Positions 7,709 through 61,082 of a DNA stretch of 64,000 nucleotides are shown here, one piece after another (position 1 is the first letter of the stretch; every line of letters begins with the position of its first letter). The DNA is from Eutypella sp. D-1 (Eukaryota > Ascomycota > Sordariomycetes > Xylariales > Diatrypaceae): assembly GCA_023313575.1 (NCBI GenBank), contig JAJTTP010000025.1:186001-250000 (forward strand), written 5' to 3'. A program made the position numbers and the translations under genes. The notes beneath the pieces are model-generated. The model searched no databases and was not told where the DNA came from. It worked only from the letters and a program-made list of their open reading frames with translations.

Positions 7709-9958
7709 TGTGTGTCCCCCAACTTGCGTAAACTCCCCCCAACCCTGCCCTGCCCTGCCCTGCCCTGCCCTGCCCTGCCTGCCTACCAAGTACCAAATAA
7801 CGGAGAACGTAGATGAGATCAATACAAATACAACGAAAGACAAGACAAGACGAGATTAAAGGAGGAACCGGAAAAATTACCGCAGCCCAACCAACGACAA
7901 TAACCCTCCTTGCGTTTTACCGTCTCGCCTTCCTATCTCTCCGGAGACGAGACGATGAGGACCTCGTCATCACCATCACCATCGCCATCATAGGGCGTCA
8001 GGTGTAAAAAATAAAATAAAAAATAAAAATAAAAACCTAGAGCAGAGAGAGAGAGAGAGTAAGGACTGTATACAGTCCACGTCTATGTCTATGTCTGTAG
8101 CGCCGCGATGTTACAATGATGCTCTCGTAGAAAGAAAAGAAATGGGCGGCGGGGAGGGCCCCTCCGTTTTATTTTAGAAATATTTGCTTCACACACCTAG
8201 GTACCTAACCATATGGTAGTATCATCCTTCCGGGGCTAACTTGTGCCCCCGCCTCCCGTACAGTCATGGTATTAGGACCCATCGCCATCGATCACATCCC
8301 ACAGTTTCTTCACTTTACTCTTACTCTTACTCCGACTTTCCGCTTTTCCTTCCTTTCTTTCTTTCATTCTTCTCCCGCAAATGTAAATTGGCTTAACTAA
8401 GCTAATCCCACTCTAAAAATGCACACCACCGTCGCCGCTGCTACTTGCCCTACATATAAGTAGTGCTAGCTAGGTTCATGTCCTAACCTACACAGATAAT
8501 AGGTATGCAGACGGACACCGGGGCCGGGTGGAGAGGGGGGATGACGAACGAGTACGCAGCATGGCACAACGCAGCATACCACGGGCAGACAGGCAGGATC
8601 ACTGGCGAACACGTACGATTCCATATTCCCCTATTCCATACCTAGCTTTTCTCACGCCGGCCCTCCACGCGCACTTCCTTTCCTTTCCTTCCTTTCCTTC
8701 CTTCCCCATTTTCCCCCTTCTTATCCTATGTTGAGAAAAGACGAGAAGAGAAAATTGGGTAATCCAGCATGAACGGGTGGGTGTGTAAGTTAGGTAGGGT
8801 AAGGTAAGGTAAGGTAAGTATGTGTATGACACACGACGAGACAGGACAAGATAGTCAGTAATTCAGAAACACCTCCTCAATTGCTTTACTCTGCTTCGCA
8901 TTGCCTTATCTCTGTCCCTCCCTCCCAGCTTACTCTAGTAACCCCTCGGCATCATCCTCATCCATCCTCCCCCCCTCTCCTCTCCTCTCCTACCCGCCTC
9001 CCGACGAACCTAAGGCCCTGCTCCCCTGGCTGGAATCCTCCACTCCCTCCCCCTGTCCCCGGCCTTCGAGTCCAGTGCACCCAAAAATGGAATGGCATGG
9101 CATGGGATGGCATGACATGGCCTAGATGCGCGTGCGCGTGTGTATGTGTGTGTTAAGAAGGCAAGGTAAGGTAACTAAGTAACCGAAGAAGAAGATAGAA
9201 ACCACGTCCATCTCGTCGTCATCCACACGCAAGCTTAGGTGTCCTTATGTAATGCTATGTCATCATATCGTCCCCATTCCCTGCCCCGCTGTCCGGTCCG
9301 GTCGGCCGTAAATCATACCGCGTCACGTCGTCGTTCTTTCCCTTCCCTTTCCCTTCACTGTAGTGCGCGCACCTTCCTTTGCCAGCCTTGCCTCGCCTCG
9401 CCTCGCCTCGCCACCGAGATACAGAGAAGAAAGAAATCCCGACGAACGCAGCCCAGCCAGCCAAGCCAGCGAAGGTAAGTAAAGTAAAGTTTCCCCCATC
9501 TCACCAACGAACGACACACACCCTTAAGCCCTCCGCCCTCCTCCCCATCCTCATCCACGACCGATACCAAAACGATAAAACCGACGATAAAGAATAAACA
9601 CTAAAAAAAAAAAGTGAAAAGAAAAAAAAAAAGGAATATCGGGTAAGGCCTCCTACCAACCAAAACATATGCATGAACCCGCAATTCCCTTCATCATAAA
9701 AAGGCTAGGTAGGTAGGTAGGTAGGTACCTAGGCATAGATTGCCTGACCGGCTGACCGACCCAATACCAGCAGAGCTAAGTAGGTACCAATGCACAGCAA
9801 ACATAAACAGAAAAGAGAGAGAGGGAGCTGGAGCTGGAGCTGAAACTGAGTTGGGCAAGAAGACCCAGCCAGCCAGCCAACCCCAACTACCCAGCAAGCC
9901 AGCACACTCCCAGCCCAGCAACCGCACCAACTCACATTTTCCGAATATCAAGGGTGAT

Positions 9959-10060
9959 GGGATAGGATAGAATAGGATAGGATAGAATAGGATAGGATAG
10001 AATAGGATAGGATAGAATAGGATAGGATAGGATAGGATAGGATAGGATAGGATAGGATAT
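9959..10060. repeat. GGATA/GGATAGAATA minisatellite
   Basis: About 100 bases of tandem GGATA pentamers. The first half alternates with GAATA variants in a higher-order unit of 10-15 bases; the second half is pure GGATA. Confidence 0.95.
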
Positions 10061-34674: not shown

Positions 34675-36076
34675 TTAGCGCTTTCCTATACCGATGGACT
34701 TCATCCCTATCTTAAACAGGTTCATGGCCGCCCGGCCATTAATGCCCTTGCGCAGAGTCGGCTGCGATCTCTTCGTCTCCTGCGCATTCTTCGTTACGTT
34801 CCAATGGCTCAGGATATCCTCAACTAAGCTGGAGTTGCCGAACACGCCTCCGATCATGTCCGTAAGAGAGACATTGCTGCCTGTGACACTACCGACAACG
34901 TCTCCCAGAAGCTTAACAATTGGAGCGGTGGAGGTCACCCGGCGGTTGTTGAGAACGGCCTCGACGAAGCCAATGTGCTGGCCGTCAACCACGGTGGCAT
35001 TGCCAGTCGCGTCGATCTGGACATTGCCACTACTCAGCGCGTCTCCCTGGCTGGTGAGTATCGTACCGAAGTTTTGGATGAGCGTATCGAAGTACAGTTG
35101 GCCGTTGAAGTACTTGGAATTGTTGCCAGGCGGGATATACACGTCGTAGACGGTAATCAGGCCGATTCGGATGTCGCCCGACATTAGGTTGAGACTGAGG
35201 TCACCGATGCCGATAGTTAGGGTGCCCCAGTTGGGCAGGTTGAGGGTCCCCTCAATGTTGGTACCGTTCTCCGCTGGCGGCACCACGAGGCTCAACTGTT
35301 CAATGGCGAACCCCTTCAGCTTATTCAACGACTTTGCCTGAACAGTCTTGTCGATGTGGGCAGTCGACTTCAACTTTCCAAGATTGACGACCGGGTCGCC
35401 GCGGAAAGATAGGTCCACCGACGGATAGTCAAAGACGTCCTCGAACCAGGTAATAAGCTCTGTCTCGTTGCTTACAGTGACGATCTGGTCCTTGACGATA
35501 ACGTCCGTCGTCCCGTCCAGATGCTGTTCCGGCAGAGTGACATTTACGAAGGGGAAGAACCCTGGCGTCTTTTTGTTGTACAAGGACAATTTTGTAGGAT
35601 CAATCCTCGCTGGTAGAGGCGTATCGAGGACAGTGTCCAGATTGATTTTGAGCTTATCGGATGACATAGCTACGAACGCGCCGCCTTTCACAGGCATATC
35701 TTGCTTGTCGATGATATTCTGCACAATGGCGGGGAGGATCACTTTGAACCTAAGTCGCCTGTTAGCGGCATCGTGTATTGCCTGCCCCTTTCTACTAAGA
35801 CACTTACAAGATCGGTAGGAAGATGGCGAGGAAGATAATGACCCCAATGAGATACCAGAGCCAGAACCGCCCACAGTGTCGTCGCACTTTCTCTCTCTTA
35901 CCGAGAGGGGCAGCCTCTGCTGCTTTCTCTTTGACATGGTCTCCAGACGAGGCGTCATCACTGCGCTTCGCCGGGGAATCACCGCTACCTTCGCCCGCAG
36001 CACCTATAGCCTCATGAACGGAGGCACGAGGGCTGTCGGGCTCGTAGTGGGATTTGTCCTGAAAGGTAGACGCCAT
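34675..36076 (-). CDS. Single-pass membrane protein with DUF3712-type (LEA-like) lumenal domain
   Basis: Two exons (36076-35808, 35749-34675; 58-nt intron) join to 447 residues. A polar, charged N-terminal tail of about 68 residues is followed by one TM helix (FWLWYLIGVIIFLAIFLPIL, about 70-89). The rest is a long beta-rich domain with several potential N-glycosylation sites (NVT, NET, NGT, NNS, NAT, NVS). This plan, a cytosolic tail, one TM and an extracytosolic DUF3712 domain, is that of fungal proteins related to yeast vacuolar Tag1, whose DUF3712/LEA-2 domains are thought to bind lipids or proteins at the vacuolar face. The C-terminus is basic. Divergent from the repeat protein at 37925. 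Family assignment is from the layout and remembered sequence character. Confidence 0.8.
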
Positions 36077-37924: not shown

Positions 37925-40469
37925 ATGTTGTTCTCCAAGCTGCTCATCGCCGCTCTGGCGCCTGTCAGCCTTCTTGCGGACAGTCCACCGGCGGTGGCCT
38001 CAGAACCAGAGCTGGACCTTGATGCGCTGCTTGCAAAACACAACCTCGCGTTGGTTCCTCGGTCGGATCTCACAGAAGTCCTGACCGAGCTCAATGGGCT
38101 ACTCAAGAAGAACCACATCCAGCAACGCAATGCACCTCTATATCCCCGGCAAAGCAATAATACCGGCGGTTCAGGGTCAGGTCCTGATAACTCGGACTCT
38201 GATAAATCACAGCCCGGGGGTTCTGGCTCTGGGCAGAGTAATGGGCAGAATAACGGACAGAATGGCCTCGACCTTGACCTTGGAGACATACCTGGCCTCG
38301 GCGATCTGGGCAAGGCTATCGAGAGTCTGACCAAGCTTATCACTCAGTTTGGCGACCTTGGTGGTTACCTCGACGCACTCCAAGGACTGCTGAGCGACGA
38401 CTTCCTAAAGGCTCTGCATGATGCTATGATTTTCCTCGCCGCGACACTTAGGCCACCAATTCCCAACATAACGAGAAACATTCTGACGAAGACGGAGCCA
38501 TTAATTGAATTGGTTGCGTCCTTGGATTTGAAAGGTATCATCGGCGAAATCGAGGACATCGACCTCAAGGGCATACTGAACGCACTGTCGCCGCTATTGA
38601 AGCCCGATTCCATCAAGAACCTCGTGACTCTGTTGGACAATGCCGGCTCACTCCTAACCAAGGAGACTGTCGACGCCCTGAAGTCGCTGCTTACCAGCGC
38701 ACAGCCTCTTATCGACAGTCTCAAGGATCTAGAGCTTAAACCCATACTCGATGCCCTCTCACCACTGCTGAAGCCAGAGTCTATCAAGGGTCTTGTGAAC
38801 CTGCTGAACAACGCTGGCGCCCTTCTGACTGCGGATACGGTTAAGACGCTCAAGTCTCTTCTTTCCAGCGCGCAGCCATTGATCGACAGCCTGAAGGACA
38901 TCGACTTGCAAGGTCTGCTTGACCAGATCTCACCAATCCTCAAGGAGCTTAGCGACCTTAACATCAAGGACCTATTCGACGCCGTTAAGCCTCTCTTGTC
39001 ACCGGAGTCTATCAAGGGTATTCAGGGCTTACTAGGCAATGCTGAAGACCTCCTGACCAAGAACTTCGTGGATGAAACCAAGTCGCTAATTCACGCAACC
39101 GGGCCCCTGCTTGACAAGGTAGGCAAGATCGATCTGGACGGCCTTCTAGACCAGATCACGCCTCTGCTTAACAAGCTTAGCAAGCTCGATCTCGCAGGCC
39201 TGATTGATAAGGTCTCGCCGCTACTCGACAGCCTTAGCGAAATCGACATCAAGGGCCTGCTATCTAAGGTCTCGCCGTTGCTTGATACTATCAGCAAGAT
39301 TGACGTGAAGGGCATACTTGCGTCTATCGAGCCGCTGTTGACGGCTGAGTCAATAAAGGGCATTCTAGGACTCCTGGATAATGCCGAGGACTTGTTGACG
39401 CCTAAGTTCGTCAACCAGACACACACAGTCGTTGGCGGCGCTGTTCCCTTGATATCGGCCGTTGGCGGTCTCGACTTGCAAGGTCTCCTTGACAAGGTGA
39501 AACCACTCCTAGACTCCCTCAGCAAGGTCGACGTGCAAGGCCTACTTGACAAGGCGAAGCCATTACTGGATTCTCTCAGCAAGGTCGACATAAACAGCCT
39601 CCTCGAGAAAGTGAAGCCCCTCCTGGACTCACTAAGCAAGATCGACATAGACGGCCTCCTCGATCAAGTCCAGCCTATTCTGAGTAATCTGGGAAAGATC
39701 GACCTCGCAGGTCTCTTGGACAAGGTGCGGCCTCTCCTGAACTCCCTAAGCAAGATCGACGTTGAGGGTCTCCTGGATCAGATCAAACCCATCTTGAACT
39801 CGGTGGGCGAGATCGACTTCGCTGGCCTGATCAAGAAGATCACTCCCATCCTGAATGAGGTCGGCGACATCGACCTCGCGGGCATCTTCAAGGCGCTCTC
39901 GCCACTCTTGACGCCTCAGTCGATTACTGGCATCACAGGTCTGGTCGGCAACGCGGAGAAGCTGCTAACCAACGACTTCGTCAACGACACACACACCATA
40001 ATCAACGGCACGGCGCCGCTGGTGGGCGCGCTCGGGGCAATCGACATCGGCGGCCTCATGGACAAGGTCGAGCCGCTGCTCGATTCGCTGAGCGAAGTCG
40101 ACCTGGGCGGCATCAAGGACAGCGTCGGACCTGTCCTAAAGACGCTCGGCAAGATCGATATCAAGGGCATCATCAACGAGGTGGTGCCTTTGATCACGCC
40201 GGATGCTGTAAAGGGCGTCTTCGAGCTCTTGGGCAACGCCGAGGACCTCCTAACGGATCAATTCGTGTCGCAGACCACGGAACTGATTGGCGATGCGACA
40301 CCGGTAAGTTCTCCCTCCTCCTATTACGTTTCCTTCCCTCCATTCGTGGCTCCTGCGCGGCTCTTTTGTGGAAAACGCGATTGCTGACCTTTCTCTCCTC
40401 GCGGCTTAGATCCTGGCGACGGTCTCCGACTTCATCAATGCCATCTTGCAATCGTTGCTCGAGGGCTGA
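37925..40469 (+). CDS. Secreted protein of 31 tandem 19-residue amphipathic repeats
   Basis: Two exons (37925-40303, 40410-40469) join to 812 residues. The first ATG starts a signal peptide (MLFSKLLIAALAPVSLLADS), so the protein enters the secretory pathway. A pro-like segment ends near YPRQSNNTGG and a Gly/Ser/Asn/Gln linker follows (about 80-118). From residue 211 to the end run 31 repeats of exactly 19 residues with no insertion or deletion. Consensus A is KIDLxGLLDKVxPLLDSLS. Class B is IKGIxGLLxNAEDLLTxxF and class C is VxxTxxxIxxAxPLLxxVG. B is always followed by C, and BC always follows an A ending in P-(E/D/Q)-S, AES or PDA. Leu/Ile spacing and a near-invariant Pro at position 13 suggest an alpha solenoid or lipid-binding amphipathic helices. 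I do not know a named family. Confidence 0.88.
38555..40303 (+). repeat. Array of 57-bp (19-codon) coding repeats
   Basis: Unit 1 starts at codon 211 (38555). Unit 31 starts at 40265, exactly 30 x 57 bases later, so the phase is never lost. The DNA has diverged much more than the protein, with synonymous differences in most units. This argues for old duplication with selection, not recent expansion. The last unit is interrupted by the intron. Confidence 0.92.
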
Positions 40470-43994: not shown

Positions 43995-44863
43995 ATGTCC
44001 ACCATCGTACTAATCAGCGGCGCGAACCGGGGGCTCGGCAAGGGCCTTCTGGAGCGGTACCTAAAGCTACCAAACCACACCGTGATCGCCGCGAACCGGT
44101 ACCCGGAGCACCCAACATCAAAAGCGCTATTCGACCTCCCTAAGGCGGAGGGAAGCAGGCTGGTCGTGGTCAAGCTCGACGCGAACATCTGGGCCGACGC
44201 CGCCGCTGCCGTGCAGACGCTCGGGGCTCAGGGGATCGACCGTCTCGACATCGTGGTCGCGAATGCCGGCGTCTCCTACGCTTGGCCCACCGTCGCTGAC
44301 GTCACGCCCGAGCAGCTGGCCGGCCACATCGGGCCCAATGTTTATGGTGTCGTAGCGCTGTACCAGGCCACGCGACCGTTGCTGCGGAAGTCCACGCGAG
44401 AGCCGGTCTTCGCCCTCATGGGGAGCATGGCCGGTAGATTAAAGTAGATTCTCTCCCCCCCCCCCCCCCCCCCCCCTCCCCCCCTTTCCCCATGATTGGC
44501 ACCGTTCATCTTGAGTTGCTGGAACTGGCTGACTTAACGGTACTCACCGCACACAAAAGCTCGCAACCCCCGGTCCCGAACGCATGTTACGGCCCGTCCA
44601 AGGCGGCGGCGTCGTGGTTCAGCGTGCGCATCAACGCCGAGGAGGAGTGGCTGCACTCGGTGATCCTGGACCCGGGCCTGGTGCGCACGGACCTGGGCGA
44701 CGCGGGCGCGGCCGCCCTAGGATTCGACGAGGCCATTAGGGAAAAGGCGATGATTGGCGTCGACGAGTCGTGCGATGGTCTGATGAAGGTGCTGGCTGTG
44801 ACGACGAAGGCCGAGCATGGCGGCAAGGTGGTCCAGTGGACGGGCGAGATTGTCACTTTGTAG
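43995..44863 (+). pseudogene. Short-chain dehydrogenase/reductase, reading frame broken
   Basis: The N-terminal part (43995-44447) has the SDR NAD(P)-binding motif VLISGANRGLGKGLLER, VVANAGV and a strand ending ALMGSMAG. The C-terminal part (44554-44863) has the catalytic ACYGPSKAAASW (Y-x-x-x-K) and the helix/loop LDPGLVRTDLGDAG. Together they make a classic SDR of about 245 residues, like the small fungal NAD(P)-binding SDRs. A donor G|GTAGAT (44434) and an acceptor AAAAG (44560) enclose a poly-C-rich intron, but the two exons do not share phase. One more C in the five-C run at 44567-44571 would join them. So this is either a pseudogene by a one-base deletion or a sequencing error in a C-run. 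Function cannot be narrowed beyond a reductase. Confidence 0.6.
44456..44486. repeat. Poly-C tract within dehydrogenase intron
   Basis: A run of more than 20 C with one T interruption lies just after the putative donor site. Confidence 0.85.
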
Positions 44864-54839: not shown

Positions 54840-57053
54840 CTTCAGAAAACCTGCAGCCGAGCCCGACGTACCCCATCTCCAGACACGTCTTGACGTCGTC
54901 GTCTTCGACCTCAAAGTGCTTCCTCTGCCCTGTGCGCGGATCCATCCACCCTCCTCATGAGCCCTAGTCCCTCTAGTCCGTCTCGGCCAGCGGTCGGTCG
55001 TCGTCTGCGTTGCCGTTCGCCGACCGCGAGGACTTGCCTACAGCTCAGCTCACCCCCCCTCAACCCCCCAGGCAGAGCGAACCCAACCGGGCGAGCGAGG
55101 CGTACATGGCTCAGCTCAGCAAGCGACGATCGTTTGATTGGGGCTTTGCCGATCAACTGGTTAGTCGCTTCCTTCGCGCTGCCACGGGCCATGCGGTACT
55201 TTCCGTGCCCCCCCCCCCTCCCTCCGCCCCGGCGGTCAGACACAATTGCGACGAATATAGATTATATACACATTTCCTTCTGGTAACGAACAAGAGACGT
55301 ATAAGTTCTGTCGTCAAGTATTGGTCACCGCCGGCCTCGAAGCTCTTCACGGGACCCCGTTAGGGGGGTCCTGGATATCCTGGAGTACCACCAAGTGTAC
55401 GTAGGCGTCGTACGACCCCTTCGGAGATGTGAGCCGAAACGGGGCTTTATGGAAGCCTGCTGCCTTGCCTACTATGGGTTGATCAAGAACCCACCATCCT
55501 CGCATCAGCCGCATGTCCCGGAGTTTTGGATAGGACGGTATGCGCGGCAGCCAATCTTGGCACGTGACCTTCTTGCCGGATATCCAAGCCCAGAGACGTT
55601 AAGGCGTCCCGTGGGGAAATACTAGGTCCGCCTACGATGGGGAATTCGCCAAGATCCTACTTTCTTCCTGCTCGCTTGTGCTGTGGTCGTATGCCCATAC
55701 AGCCGGGTAATTCAGCCGGCCAACGTAATGATTCAAGATAACTGAGATGGTCAGAGCATTGGACGATCAGGGTGTTCACCGATCAAGGCAGCAGGATTCG
55801 GGCTGTTCATGAGACTCCGGAGAAAAGGGTTTTAGGGATTCGTACTACTCGAAATTCAATCCTCAAAGAATTCGAGGACTCGAGGGTTACAATCCCACGC
55901 GAGATCGTTGGGCCACTGCAAGCTACTATCCCCTTTCACCATACCAAACCACCAAGCGCAGCATTATGCGGATTGGTTTATAGCAATCTGCTCATGGCTG
56001 TCGAGTGATATAGCGGCAACAATCATACCACGGTATCATGAGACCCCTCGATAATAACTTGTTAGCTAGTCTTGGGTCTCAACTGTGATATGGGCACTAG
56101 GTGGGGGCTTATAACGGTAACTTCCTTTTGAAATCGCTGGAATTTGCCGCCTCCGCTACGAAATCGTGCTTCATCGTAAGGTCTTCTAGAAGCTTGAATC
56201 CTGCTGGGAAGTCAAGGACCCTTCATCATACTCTCATCCCGCTTTATCACCTTCCATCAAATCGATAGCTCAATGCAATGACGGACATCATCGATATCGA
56301 GTTCGTTTCATGTCTCTCACCTGGTAGCAAGCTTTTCCTCAGGGTTTCTTGCCTTGCTTTGGATTCCGCCTAACAAAAAACTCGCGACAAGTATATACAC
56401 GATTATCCACACCGGCCGAAGGACTTCCAGTCTATTCAGTTTCACCTATGAAAATATATGTTGCCAAAACACCTTATGGAGGAGAATCTTACCCATTTGA
56501 TAGTAGCGATCTAATTACACACTGAATCCCTTCCAGGTTCCAAGTTTCACTTCATCTTCGGAGGCTATGCATCATGAAAGAAAGCGCCTCGAAGACGAGC
56601 TTTCAAACTCAACCCCTGAACATGCCATGTGCATATTGAACGGTATTGTCTATGACAAGATGGTGATGAAGGATTGATAATGGAAAATGATTGTCGCTCA
56701 TTAGCTACGGGGCCTCTTTCAATTGTAATATTATTCGATTATCAGTTGGCCTAATTATAGACACTCGCTGAATGGTGGCCAATACGCTCTCTAATATCCG
56801 GGTGAGGTCTCTTTGTGCGGCACCGAGAAGTTGTCCGCGTGACCGGAATAGGAAATTGGACGTCTGCACCCTCAAAATTTGCTTTGAGAGTTATCCCGTG
56901 TGGTCGATTACATCGCCTTACAATGGCTCTTTATGTCTGGGTCCTTAATATGGGTAGCCGCCGCGCTGCTGCTATAAAGTGCTTGTCTAAGATGCTGAAA
57001 AAACGATATCCTGGATAAAACTATCAACACTGACCTGCACTCGGTCATACAAT
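54840..57053. other. 2.2-kb intergenic region
   Basis: No gene is called. A C-run lies at about 55209-55219 and a hairpin at 55352-55371 (GGACCCC/GGGGTCC). Several open frames (55010-55363, 55395-55625, 55772-56008) lack recognisable features. Confidence 0.5.
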
Positions 57054-60000
57054 ATGCCTACCAGTGGATATATCGGTTTACTCGCAACATTGGGTCTCGC
57101 GGCTCGACTTGTTGTCGGGCAGCTAAACCCTGATTGCAACCCACTAGAGACAACATGTCCGCCGAAGAAAGGGTGGCCCGAACAGAATTACTACATCGAC
57201 TTCACCAAGGAGTCAAAGGCACCCCCGAACTGGGTTATTGCGAACTACGAGAACATCAACTTCACCCCCAATGGTGCCGAGTTCCCTTACGCCAAAAGAA
57301 AGAATGCCCCGAACATGTGGACCGACTTCTACATGCTCGGTGGCCGCTACGACGTAGTGATGAAGATTGCTCCCGGACAAGGGATCATCAGCAGCGCCGT
57401 TCTATGGTCCGACGTCCAAGATGAGATCGATTGGGAATTCTCAGGAAATCAGCATGGGGAGAAGCCGTTCCCCCCACCCGACGGGATGTGGACAGTAGAG
57501 ACGAATGTTTTCACCCGTGGAAAGATGTGGGACGGCGCCGCCACCTACCAGAAAGATGCCCATAAGCCCACCGAGGAATTCCATACTTATTCCGTAGATT
57601 GGGACGAGAACCATATAAACTGGTACGTCGATAACAAGCTCGTTCGTGGCATTCTGGCCAAAGATACGCCCAAAGGATTCGAATTCCCAACCTCACCTAT
57701 GAAGCTTCAGATTGGGCTTTGGGGCGGAGGCGACCCTGACAACAGTTACTGGACCAAGCTTTGGGCTGGTAGCGACATCGACTTTACTGGAATGCCTTAC
57801 ACAGCATACGTGAAGAGTGTGAACATCACCAACAAATACCCGGCTTGTCAGTATAAGTTCAAGGACCAAGTAAGTTGCCGACTATTGTTTATTTGAAGAG
57901 TCTTGTATTAACCTCGTGTAGAGTGGAAAGTTCGAGTCGATCGAGAGGATACAGGACGGCTGCAGCCCTTCAGGCACGTCTTCCATAGAGACATCCAACA
58001 CGCCAAAGCTTGCCAGGAAACAGCTAACCCCGGAAGCTCCATCCTACGCAGCCTCTCCGATGCCGTCTAGTTCGCCGGGATCAGTAGTGCCCCCTGTGCC
58101 GCCTTCCTCCAGCGGCTACGTCGCATCTCCTATACCTACTACTTCTCAAGGTTATCAGGCTTCGTCAATGCCACCTAGTTCTCAGGGATCCGTAACCTCC
58201 TCAACTCCATCCACTTCCAACGGTTATGTCGCATCTCCTTTGCCTAGCTCTTCTCAGGGGTATCAAGCGTCTTCGGCGCCCACCAGCTCCAAGGGAGATG
58301 CGAGCTCACCAATCCCGTCAAGTTCTCAAGGATCCTCAGTTTCTCCAGCACCGACTACCTCGCAAGGTTACGTCGCTTCTCCAATGCCTAGTAGTTCCCA
58401 GACAGGTGGAGACCTCACGAAGGCACCTCCCTCATCCCCATCCGAGTCGCAGACAACCCCTACGTCTGCCCCAGGGAAGATCACGTATCCTGAGAAAGAT
58501 ATGCCGCCGATCCCACCATCCTCATCTGTTCAGTCGAATGCTACGGCGACAGGCACATCGGCCACCGTATCAGCGTCGCCGTCATCATCAGCAACTGGGA
58601 GCGGATATCCCACTTCCGGGGGAATCCTGAGCAGTCTTAGTTCTTTTATCTTGGGTTCAACTAGTAGCGGTAGCCTGACCAGCCCTGGAACTAGCGGTTA
58701 CCCCCAGATCACGATGCCAACGACTTCTGGTTCAGTCCCTCCTCCAGAAAGCGGGCCCGCTACCGGAAACTTTTCATCGACTGCTGTTTCGAACGCGACT
58801 ACTAGTGGCTCTATCATAACTACTAGCACGATATCGACAGTCTACTCGACCAATATCTACACTGTCACGTCTTGCCCACCTGAAGTGACTAACTGCCCTA
58901 CTGGACAGATCACTACAGAGTTGATATCTCTCACTACTACAGTGTGTCCCGTGACCAGTACGATTGGAGTTGACAAGCCGAGCGTTCCCAGCAGTAGCCC
59001 TGTGCCATCCTCGTCATCCGGGAGCCTGTCGCTCAGTGCACCCCTGAATACTTCATCGGCTGCTGAAATTGCAAGCTCGTCGTTGGGCTATGTAGCCTCA
59101 TCGTTAAGCTCGAGCTTGGCATTTCCCTCAGCAAACTCCACAGGCAACAGTACAGGATTCAGTTCGGCCCCCCCTGTTCGGCTGCTGCCCCCGAAAACGT
59201 ATACGGCGAGTAGCAGGGTTACGACGAGCACCCTATCGACGGTGTATTCGACCAACATTGCCACCATAACATCATGCGCCCCAGAAGTCACGAATTGCCC
59301 GAAAGGCCAGGTAACCACAGAGGTAGTCTCATTGTATACTACCATCTGTCCGGTTACTCAAGATATTATCGACGGGACCACATATACCCAGCCTGAGACT
59401 ACGTCACCGAGCACACCCTCGCCTTCTCCAGGGTCTTCGTATCCTGCTTCCGGTGGACCACCTCCAGCAACTACATCTGATAGCATCGTAAGCGGCCCAG
59501 TCCCACCGATCGGAGCCATTCCTGTCGGCAACTCCAGTGTACCTTTTGGAAACGACACGACAGCTATTCCTGGGAGTTCTTCGGCTCTACCATCCATGAT
59601 CACGAATTCTTCCACGGCAGTTCCTATGACCACCTCAACTGTTTACTCGACCAACATCTACACTGTGACTTCGTGTGCACCGGATGTGACAGACTGCCCT
59701 AAAGGTCAAGTGACAACGGAGCTTGTATCGCTATACACGACGATCTGTCCTGTCGACAAGAGTCCAACCGCACCATCTGCAGGATTGAAAGTACCTGAGA
59801 CGTCAGCACAGCCGACTCCACCAGAGTCTAGTGTAGAGGCCAGTTCTGCGACTCTCACAACGGAGAATGGTGCACCTAGTACCCCGATTAACACGACTCC
59901 GGCACCGCCGTCTTATACGACGTCAACGGTGTACTCAACGAACATCTATACCGTTACGTCCTGTGCTCCAGAAGTCACCAACTGTCCAGCAAGTATGGGT

Positions 60001-61082
60001 AAAGTTACAACCGAAGTAGTTGCAATTTCGACCACTGTGTGCCCCGTAACCGAGACGAAGCCCAAAGAGCCGGCGCCATCGACTCCTGAAGGATCCTACT
60101 CAACCACGGCCGTCACGATCAGTACGGTGTTTGGTACCTCGACTGTTCTAGTAACTTCGACTATCAGCTTCATCGATACTCCCGCCCCGACCACTCCACC
60201 CAGTACCGGCACTATTGGTACTAGCGGAACTTCCGAGGTTTCGCCCGAGACAACCGGTGTCTATCAGAATAAGAGTAAGCCCTGTACAACCCTGACTCTA
60301 GGCAAATATTTCACAACTGTAATCGAGTATGAGTCGATGACTGCTGAACCCACCACATCCGAAGCTACCCAGCCATCGATGGATGTGCCAAGCTACCAGA
60401 TGAGCCAGCCAGATAGCACCATGGAGATGGGATCGGCTCAGGCTCCTTCAGGCACCACCCCAGCTCCAAGGTTAGTAACATACTAATATCAACCCTTTAT
60501 ATCATTTGAACTTGCCCTGCCACTTAGGAAACGAATACTGACTCTTGTCCTCGTAGTCCATTACCGCCTAAGCCTACAGCTCAACAGAAGGTCCCCGCGC
60601 CATCAGAACCAACCGACGTGATTGATAAAGGCACCACGACAATTACTAGCGCCTTTACCGATCAGTCCACGGTATACCTGACACGTCCGCACAAGACGGA
60701 GAAGCCAGCTCCCAGCCCAGCTCCGGGGACCCCAGGCGAGGACGCATGTGCAAGCTGCCCCTGCGAGCCCACCACGGTCTCGGTAACCGTGACTGCTGCC
60801 GGCTCTACTCAGACCGCCACCGTCACCGTTACTAGCACCGTGCAGCCACCATTCCCCACCGGTGGTGGAAGCACTGGAGGTATATATGGGACTGGCACTG
60901 GCGCTGTTCCGACGACTACGAGTTCCGACGCGGCGGGCTCTAGTACTGATGACAATACCGGATACCCGACCATAAGCACCAGCGCGGTCACAAGTAGCTC
61001 TATGGGCAGTGATATGCCTATGCGGAGATGGTTCCGAAGAGCACCCTACGGGCATGGGCACGGTCAGCACAGACATGGTTGA
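57054..61082 (+). CDS. Crh-type GH16 cell-wall glycosidase/transglycosylase with long Ser/Thr-rich repeats
   Basis: Crh enzymes crosslink chitin to beta-glucan in fungal cell walls. Three exons (57054-57869, 57922-60470, 60557-61082) join to 1296 residues. Residues 1-22 form a signal peptide, followed by the Crh-type CNPLETTCPPKKGW. The GH16 catalytic motif is DEIDWEF (E124, D126, E128), with the DENHINWYVDNKLVR and GLWGGGDPDNSYW segments of the family. After residue 272 the protein becomes Ser/Thr/Pro-rich. It has 12-residue repeats (PSSSQGYVASPM type, about 318-430) and then four cysteine modules with YSTNIYTVTSCAPEVTNCPK, near residues 575, 703, 841 and 938, like flocculin-type repeats. 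The C-terminus ends in GHGHGQHRHG with no hydrophobic GPI tail. It is far longer than usual Crh proteins (about 400-500). Confidence 0.9.
58060..58400 (+). repeat. 12-residue Ser/Pro coding repeats
   Basis: About ten 36-bp units coding PSSSQGYVASPM-like peptides in alternating variants, inside the Crh-type gene. Confidence 0.85.
58830..60055 (+). repeat. Four flocculin-like cysteine modules
   Basis: Four copies of a module of about 43 residues (TSTVYSTNIYTVTSC, then a CP-containing stretch, TTEVVSLYTTICPVT), starting near 58830, 59215, 59630 and 59920. They are separated by variable Ser/Pro linkers. Each has three to four conserved cysteines. Confidence 0.85.

What the first reader, a model, noticed from the sequence alone, without database searches (positions are those of the whole stretch)
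37925..40469. Secreted protein built of 31 gap-free 19-residue repeats with an A/B/C grammar
From residue 211 the protein is 31 consecutive units of exactly 19 residues. Unit 1 starts at base 38555 and unit 31 at 40265, exactly 30 x 57 bases apart. Class A (KIDLxGLLDKVxPLLDSLS) fills runs of one to eight. At five to six points an A unit ending in P-(E/D/Q)-S or similar is followed by one B (IKGIxGLLxNAEDLLTxxF) and one C (VxxTxxxIxxAxPLLxxVG). B never occurs without C. Pro at position 13 and hydrophobics at 2, 4, 7, 8, 11, 14, 15 and 18 suggest an alpha solenoid or a string of amphipathic lipid- or surface-binding helices. With a signal peptide, this could be a new class of secreted surface-active or lipid-carrying protein. 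I know no named family with this repeat.
Basis: partly seen in the sequence, partly recalled or inferred. Interest (0 to 1): 0.88.

Follow-up and report, generated by a model that had tools for sequence, protein, structure and literature searches.

The report
Secreted fungal 19-residue helix-repeat protein
A fungal gene encodes a protein that looks secreted and is mostly a gap-free string of 31 nineteen-residue helical units of three kinds in an ordered pattern; related fungal proteins keep the unit length, but its fold and job are unknown.

Summary
Gene 37925-40469 (+) has one intron (40304-40409) and encodes 812 residues. Residues 211-799 are 31 gap-free 19-residue units: 19 A, 6 B, 6 C, arranged as six ABC triplets plus 13 solo A. 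Four database relatives, 'hypothetical' or unnamed, share the repeat: Cordyceps militaris, Monosporascus, Fusarium fujikuroi and an unnamed JGI protein. The C. militaris protein was found with residues 1-210 alone, which precede the 31 units, and has 25 contiguous 19-residue units, the first three weak. ABC order recurs in relatives, but C. militaris is mostly A-A-C. No credible Pfam, NCBIfam or PDB match. Hydrophobicity peaks at 100 degrees: one amphipathic helix per unit. Two AlphaFold models place helices unit by unit, but pLDDT is about 35 and pTM 0.18-0.19, so the tertiary fold is unresolved. Best reading: a secreted array with one helix per unit, probably packed as a solenoid, with two joint types. 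Surface activity and lipid carriage are untested; the apolipoprotein class-A charge pattern was tested and not found. A real, apparently undescribed repeat of moderate interest.

The parts
37925..40469 (+). whole gene, two exons, 812-residue protein
   Evidence: continuous frame, canonical splice sites, stop TGA ends at 40469
37925..37978 (+). probable signal peptide, residues 1-18
   Evidence: by eye: K5 then 13 mostly hydrophobic residues ending LLA; similar start in P0002; no predictor available
38012..38110 (+). conserved N-terminal motif, residues 30-62 (LDLDALLAKHNLALVPRSDLTEVLTELNGLLKK)
   Evidence: aligned in P0002, P0003 and P0004; residues 1-210 alone find P0004 at E 6.4e-20; residues 27-70 alone found nothing
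38150..38269 (+). Gly/Ser/Asn-rich linker, residues 76-115, after an RQ pair (75-76) that may be a Kex2-like cleavage site
   Evidence: sequence; RQ at the equivalent place in P0002 and P0004; cleavage is inference
38348..38518 (+). probable degenerate ABC triplet, residues 142-198
   Evidence: spacing kept in P0002 and P0004; weak profile scores in this protein
38519..38554 (+). 12-residue truncated A unit, residues 199-210
   Evidence: the equivalent unit in P0004 is a full 19 residues
38555..40427 (+). array of 31 gap-free 19-residue units, residues 211-799 (intron inside unit 31)
38555..38725 (+). ABC triplet, units 1-3
38726..38896 (+). ABC triplet, units 4-6
38954..39124 (+). ABC triplet, units 8-10
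39296..39466 (+). ABC triplet, units 14-16
39467..39865 (+). seven solo A units, 17-23
39866..40036 (+). ABC triplet, units 24-26
40151..40427 (+). ABC triplet, units 29-31, interrupted by the intron
40304..40409 (+). intron, 106 nt, phase 0
   Evidence: GTAAGT donor, TTAG acceptor; no transcript data
40428..40469 (+). 13-residue C-terminal tail DFINAILQSLLEG and stop; no GPI-type hydrophobic tail by eye

Best explanation
A secreted, acidic, cysteine- and tryptophan-free extracellular protein. After a signal peptide, a short conserved N-terminal (possibly pro-) segment and a Gly/Ser linker, it consists of an array in which every 19-residue unit is one amphipathic helix of about 13-15 residues plus a 4-6-residue joint. 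Consecutive helices most likely pack antiparallel with their Leu/Ile/Val faces inward, giving an elongated alpha-solenoid-like rod whose length is set by unit number. Solo A units are equivalent building blocks joined by (S/G)-(K/E/D)-(I/V/L)-D loops. ABC triplets use a different joint, (T/S/K)-(P/A)-(E/D/Q)-(S/A) before B and T-x-x-(F/T) before C, where the next helix starts about three residues before the unit boundary instead of three after it; this probably changes the pitch or makes a bend. Such a rod would work as an extracellular scaffold or binding surface at the hyphal wall or host interface. Shown: the array, its exact length, the grammar, the relatives, the helical periodicity. Inferred: secretion, antiparallel packing, joint function, surface role.
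For: The 19-residue length is kept without a gap over 31 units here, 25 in P0004 (the first three weak) and 14 in P0002, although synonymous sites between units are near saturation (mean pS 0.66-0.77 against pN 0.32-0.44); this points to a constraint on geometry. The hydrophobic moment peaks at 100 degrees (0.44 averaged over 31 units; 0.11 at 80 and 0.15 at 120), with phase shared by A and 5 of 6 C units and shifted in B. In the 190-residue model all 8 A units start a helix at position 4, and B and C start at position 17 of the unit before; in the long model 17 of 19 A units are helical at position 4, and all 6 A-before-B and all 6 B units are helical at positions 17-19. Near-invariant G6 (16/19) and P13 (19/19) lie on the back of the helix (141 and 161 degrees from the hydrophobic face), which suggests a second contact face. 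The counts of solo A units between triplets (0, 1, 3, 7, 2) have both parities, and identity among solo A units is the same at odd and even distances (0.526 vs 0.525), so the building block looks like one helix, not a hairpin. The array has GRAVY +0.34 and pI 4.5, and no Cys or Trp.
Against: Both AlphaFold models have pLDDT 35-36 and pTM 0.18-0.19, so compact packing is not supported by prediction; the alignments were only 5 sequences deep, and secondary structure in such models may reflect local preference only. Mid-helix Pro13 may split the unit: in 6 of 19 A units of the long model the helix stops around position 11 and resumes, and one A unit (22) has no helix. B units are less clearly amphipathic (0.111 of shuffles reach the observed moment on average, against 0.028 for A). 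No structural relative was found, and no fold search was run because the models are too poor. Secretion is by eye only. The length rule fails in P0001 and in the middle of P0003.
Confidence: 0.45

Rival explanations
1. A flexible string of amphipathic helices that folds only on a hydrophobic surface (air-water, cuticle, lipid): a secreted surfactant, repellent or lipid carrier.
For: Amphipathic helices (A units: muH 0.49, mean H 0.25 on the Eisenberg scale); low AlphaFold confidence; fungi do secrete repeat-derived surface-active peptides, e.g. Ustilago Rep1 (passages of PMC4617103).
Against: No class-A charge arrangement in A units: Lys/Arg 113 and Asp/Glu 122 degrees from the face centre, 872 of 5000 label shuffles reach that difference (B 2362 and C 543 of 5000, few residues). 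No Trp and 8 Phe in 589 residues. The conserved Gly6/Pro13 back face and indel-free length are not obviously needed for a flexible string.
Confidence: 0.27
2. A secreted effector or shielding protein of a host-associated fungus that uses the array to bind a host or rival protein at the hyphal surface, as Ustilago Rsp3 does.
For: The named relatives include an insect pathogen (Cordyceps militaris) and plant-associated genera (Fusarium, Monosporascus; names, lifestyles recalled). Rsp3 is a repeat-rich protein on hyphae that shields against antifungal maize proteins (abstract and passages of PMC5923269).
Against: One copy was found in the genome, and the ten neighbouring ORFs scanned show no effector cluster. 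Compatible with either fold.
Confidence: 0.2
3. A precursor cut by Kex2 into many short peptides (KEP/RiPP-like precursor).
For: Probably secreted, tandem repeats, RQ site near the N-terminus.
Against: The array holds a single Arg and one basic pair (KK at 637) in 589 residues, so no regular dibasic sites.
Confidence: 0.03

Closest known systems
Cordyceps militaris CCM_07087 (P0004) and P0001-P0003
   Same: Same family by sequence: shared 19-residue units; P0004 is also found with residues 1-210 alone
   Different: Different grammar (mostly A-A-C in P0004, ABC repeated in P0002) and unit number; P0001 degenerate; no described function seen in any call
HEAT/ARM-type alpha solenoids
   Same: Leu-rich helical tandem units; a conserved Pro inside a helix (HEAT Pro recalled); two units make 38 residues, near the length of one HEAT unit (recalled); weak sub-threshold Pfam hits to HEAT_RRP12_N and ARM_5
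   Different: Unit is 19 residues with one helix; no HEAT/ARM family above its cut-off; probably secreted
PLS-class pentatricopeptide repeats
   Same: A tandem helical array with class grammar in triplets (P-L-S), described in PMC11514114 (passage)
   Different: PPR units are 31-36 residues and bind RNA (same passage); no PPR match
Ustilago repellent Rep1
   Same: Secreted fungal protein of amphipathic tandem repeats (PMC4617103 passages)
   Different: Rep1 repeats are 34-55 residues and cut apart at Kex2 sites; here no such sites and a fixed 19 residues
Ustilago Rsp3
   Same: Repeat-rich secreted fungal protein without GPI anchor, several repeat types (PMC5923269 passages)
   Different: Rsp3 needs a Cys-rich region; this protein has no Cys

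Membership tests
CCM_07087-like fungal 19-residue array family (named here) | gap-free 19-residue amphipathic units | tested here: met
   31 units; 25 in P0004 (first three 11.0, 0.6 and 7.7 bits) and 14 in P0002 (its C units only 3.0-8.5 bits)
CCM_07087-like fungal 19-residue array family (named here) | conserved N-terminal LAKHNLALVPRS-type motif | tested here: met
   aligned in P0002, P0003 and P0004; not evident in P0001; a search with residues 27-70 alone found nothing at E<=1
HEAT/ARM repeats | significant match to a HEAT or ARM model | tested here: not met
   only HEAT_RRP12_N 11.5 bits (cut-off 27) and ARM_5 7.9 bits (cut-off 27); 14.0 and 9.3 with the array alone
HEAT/ARM repeats | two- or three-helix unit of about 37-47 residues (recalled) | tested here: not met
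   19-residue unit; no odd/even alternation among 13 solo A units
Exchangeable apolipoproteins | Pfam apolipoprotein match | tested here: not met
   none listed at E<=10 (HMMER filters drop most weak matches)
Exchangeable apolipoproteins | class-A charge arrangement of helices | tested here: not met
   9-degree difference in A units, 872/5000 shuffles reach it
Exchangeable apolipoproteins | lipid binding | not testable with these tools
   needs purified protein
Kex2-processed repeat precursors and Rep1-type repellents | dibasic cleavage sites between repeats | tested here: not met
   one KK and no KR, RR or RK in the array
LIN52 (PF10044) | match above the curated cut-off, shared by the family | tested here: inconclusive
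   32.1 bits (cut-off 22) over residues 275-347, but no LIN52 match at E<=1 in 4 of 4 relatives, which instead give other unrelated sub-threshold hits; LIN52 is a nuclear protein (recalled); I take it as a chance hit on a Leu-rich repeat
Hydrophobins / HsbA | Pfam match or Cys pattern | tested here: not met
   none listed at E<=10; no Cys
Alpha solenoid | regular packed superhelix | tested here: inconclusive
   helix per unit but pLDDT 35-36, pTM 0.18-0.19

The most novel reading that the evidence does not exclude
A new class of extracellular solenoid whose repeat is a single 19-residue helix, with every helix related to the next by the same screw operation, so that any number of units, odd or even, can be inserted. 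Two joint types (A-A loops, and the TPES/TxxF joints around B) act as a code that sets straight and bent segments, and fungi rewrite the code (ABC, A-A-C, long A runs) while keeping the unit length.
Probability: 0.25. Interest if true: 0.72.

Novelty: new variant of a known kind. Interest (0 to 1): 0.5.

Why it matters
Natural alpha-solenoids are generally built from units of two or three helices (recalled). A secreted array with one helix per unit, indel-free over dozens of units and with a readable joint grammar, would be a new architecture for repeat-protein design and a testable system for how repeat order sets shape. If it coats hyphae, it adds a cysteine-free alternative to hydrophobins and repellents. 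The relatives found are 'hypothetical' or unnamed, and no paper on the repeat appeared in the listings of nine searches of the open-licence PMC library.

Tried and rejected
LIN52 Pfam hit: above cut-off in this protein but absent at E<=1 from 4 of 4 relatives; treated as chance. The relatives give their own odd sub-threshold hits (e.g. NAF, CoV_NSP7, USH1C_N; none above cut-off), which shows how easily these Leu-rich units draw chance matches.

NCBIfam MCE hit (20.8 bits, cut-off 140.5) and RNA polymerase subunit F hit (19.4, cut-off 152): far below cut-off. PDB: one hit at E 0.54 by sequence. A profile of A3 gave 25 hits at E<=10, best XpsB at 0.00045, 24 of 25 at profile positions 107-202; I take these to fall on Ser/Gly linker columns of P0002 and P0004 rather than on the repeats, but did not check the mapping.

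Class-A apolipoprotein charge pattern: my idea from the consensus helical wheel, tested, not supported.

Structure: two AlphaFold jobs. A1 (678 residues, 5 rows) pLDDT 35.7; A3 (190 residues, 5 rows) pLDDT 35.2. No fold search was run, since the models are too poor to mean anything. Of three trial alignments for the second job, A2 and A4 were not used. In the array core of A3 (columns 596-823) every MAFFT gap was 19 or 38 residues; outside that core A3 has single-residue gaps, and A4 has some gaps of 3 and 22, so this is only mild support for the register.

Relatives elsewhere: one scan of genome contigs (435 pattern matches, 0 relatives) and one of viral contigs (27 matches, 0 relatives), each with six peptide patterns from a 190-residue piece; these reach close relatives only. 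The third protein search, with residues 27-70, gave 27 candidates and no hit. In some searches only the roughly 8000 candidates sharing most words were scored; one search missed P0004 and one search missed P0002, so the list of relatives is clearly incomplete.

Ice-nucleation lead (PMC9501429, passages): the candidates in those passages are hydrophobins and an HsbA homologue; nothing like this protein appeared there.

Full report
What is there. The gene runs from ATG at 37925 to TGA ending at 40469, with one canonical 106-nt intron at 40304-40409 in phase 0; the spliced protein has 812 residues. In the genome only this place matched: one hit with the 583-residue array at E<=0.001 (6 candidates scored), and six hits with a 38-residue B-C piece at E<=1 (6 candidates scored), all six inside this gene, one per ABC triplet. 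The tool says such counts are lower bounds.

The array. Residues 211-799 are 31 units of exactly 19 residues. Identity at lags of 19, 38, 57, 76, 95 and 114 residues is 0.32-0.38, against at most 0.147 at every other lag up to 119, and at most 0.143 in 1000 shuffles scored at lags 19/38/57. Labels by eye give 19 A, 6 B and 6 C, in the order ABC ABC A ABC AAA ABC AAAAAAA ABC AA ABC. Mean pairwise identity is 0.45 within A, 0.57 within B and 0.34 within C, and 0.18-0.25 between classes. Random orders of these labels give six ABC in 1 of 100,000.

Joints. A-to-A junctions (13): all end in S or G and continue with a charged residue, then I/V/L, then D (12 of 13; N once), then L/I/V/F. A-to-B junctions (6): (K/S/T)-(P/A)-(E/D/Q)-(S/A), then (I/V)-(K/T). 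B-to-C junctions (6): T-x-x-(F/T), then V. P13 is present in all 25 A and C units and in none of the 6 B units. The T-P-E-S and S-x-x-D patterns look like helix N-caps (capping boxes, recalled).

Just before unit 1, residues 142-198 can be cut into a further A-, B- and C-like 19-mer, and 199-210 is a shortened A. On profile scores alone this is weak: 7.6 bits (as B) and 12.2 bits (as C) for two of the three, the middle one unscored; shuffles of the whole protein reach a total of 20. The relatives P0002 and P0004 carry it at the same spacing, and in C. militaris the next unit is a full 19 residues, so that its array is unbroken from residue 342 to 816. I read the phase jump here as a 7-residue deletion shared with P0002.

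Relatives. One search (whole protein) gave three proteins at E<=0.001: P0001 Fusarium fujikuroi CEK25_007815, P0002 from JGI without a name, P0003 Monosporascus sp. DL769_006429. One search (residues 1-210) gave one: P0004 Cordyceps militaris CCM_07087, E 6.4e-20, with the UniRef name 'Aggrecan core'. One search (residues 27-70) gave none at E<=1. No paper in the library holds the tags CCM_07087 or CEK25_007815. P0004 was found from the part before the 31 units (though that part includes the degenerate triplet), so the relationship does not rest on the composition of the array. Segmenting each relative with A/B/C profiles trained on this protein (20 shuffles each as control) gives totals of 686, 366, 280 and 599 bits for P0001 to P0004, against shuffle maxima of 27, 18, 17 and 21. 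P0002 is (ABC)x4 then AB, gap-free, but its C units score only 3.0-8.5 bits; its end looks frameshifted. P0004 is 25 contiguous units, of which the first three are weak (11.0, 0.6, 7.7 bits); the rest is mostly A-A-C with one A-A-B-C, and most of its C units begin like a B. P0003 has ABC near both ends with a broken middle. P0001 is degenerate and B-rich. So the rule 'B never without C' fails in P0001, and C occurs without B in P0004: the unit length is better conserved than the grammar.

Selection. Between units of one class, mean pS is 0.66-0.77 and pN 0.32-0.44 (Nei-Gojobori counts on 30 units; unit 31 left out because of the intron); the closest pair of units is 75% identical in DNA. The units are old, and the protein pattern and length are kept.

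Helix evidence. Averaged over 31 units the hydrophobic moment of positions 4-18 is 0.44 at 100 degrees, 0.32 at 90, 0.35 at 110, 0.11 at 80 and 0.15 at 120. Of shuffles of the same residues, 0.028 (A), 0.036 (C) and 0.111 (B) on average reach the observed moment. In the solo-A run of units 17-23, 15-residue windows give the highest moment from offset 7 (0.58) and the lowest from offset 16 (0.16), which places the break near the unit boundary (all). AlphaFold gave pLDDT 35.7 and pTM 0.18 for 678 residues, and pLDDT 35.2 and pTM 0.19 for 190 residues, so no tertiary claim can rest on them. Their secondary structure is nevertheless regular: in the small model 8 of 8 A units begin a helix at position 4 and the one B and one C helix begin at position 17 of the preceding unit; in the long model 17 of 19 A units are helical at position 4, and all 6 A-before-B units and all 6 B units are helical at positions 17-19. 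Against this, 6 of 19 A units in the long model have the helix interrupted around position 11, and unit 22 has none.

Why one helix per unit, and why a solenoid is my preference. A 4-to-6-residue joint cannot bring a 13-to-15-residue helix back to a parallel start, so neighbours should be antiparallel (inference). In a classical hairpin solenoid, odd and even helices then differ; here solo A units are as alike at odd as at even distances (0.526, n=40; 0.525, n=38), and triplets are separated by 0, 1, 3, 7 and 2 solo A units. The simplest model is one helix repeated by a two-fold-screw-like operation, with hydrophobic faces inward. Conserved Gly6 and Pro13 on the back of the helix, indel-free length and positive GRAVY (0.34) fit a packed array better than a flexible string, but do not prove it.

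Apolipoprotein-like class-A charge distribution: not found. Repeat-derived peptides cut by Kex2: one KK and no other basic pair in the array. Hydrophobin, HsbA, apolipoprotein: no Pfam match listed at E<=10. Surface activity and lipid binding remain open.

Neighbourhood. One search lists 59 stop-to-stop ORFs of 150 residues or more, on both strands, many of them surely not genes. Pfam scans of ten of them other than the repeat gene found, at E<=1e-4, F-box-like, DUF3712, DOT1, GH16, MFS_1, PfkB and protein kinase matches in seven and nothing in three: no sign there of a gene cluster that explains the protein. The other ORFs were not scanned.

Literature. Nine searches of the open-licence PMC library showed no description of this repeat in their listings; two of them were for gene tags, and two listings were cut (15 of 51 papers, 10 of 18). 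I saw search listings, plus passages of PMC9501429, PMC11514114, PMC4617103 and PMC5923269; of the Kex2-repeat paper PMC7329392 only the listing and the start of its abstract. No paper was read whole. Most subscription papers are not in the library.

Verdict. A real, conserved, apparently undescribed repeat family; a new variant of the known kind 'secreted fungal tandem-repeat protein', with a possible new single-helix solenoid architecture that the present models cannot confirm.

Noticed in passing
window 34678-36003 (-): ORF with a DUF3712 domain (88.4 bits), the nearest scanned neighbour upstream, on the opposite strand; an overlapping ORF at 35804-36076 ends in what looks like a transmembrane segment.
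   Followed up: partly
window 56991-60483 (+): GH16 domain ORF (56991-57893) followed in the same orientation by an 854-residue open frame (57922-60483) without Pfam match whose first 60 residues are Ser/Pro/Thr-rich; possibly one long cell-wall protein gene split by an intron.
   Followed up: no
window 9956-10059: Pentanucleotide GATAG tandem array, 20.8 copies, 90% matches.
   Followed up: no
window 44455-44484: Run of about 30 C (93% matches).
   Followed up: no
P0001 (Fusarium fujikuroi CEK25_007815): 1292-residue relative with a degenerate, B-rich array whose unit register is often broken; it may be a decaying gene or a bad gene model.
   Followed up: partly
P0002 residues about 578-700: The array breaks into Ser/Leu/Cys-rich sequence that looks like a frame change in the gene model.
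   Followed up: no
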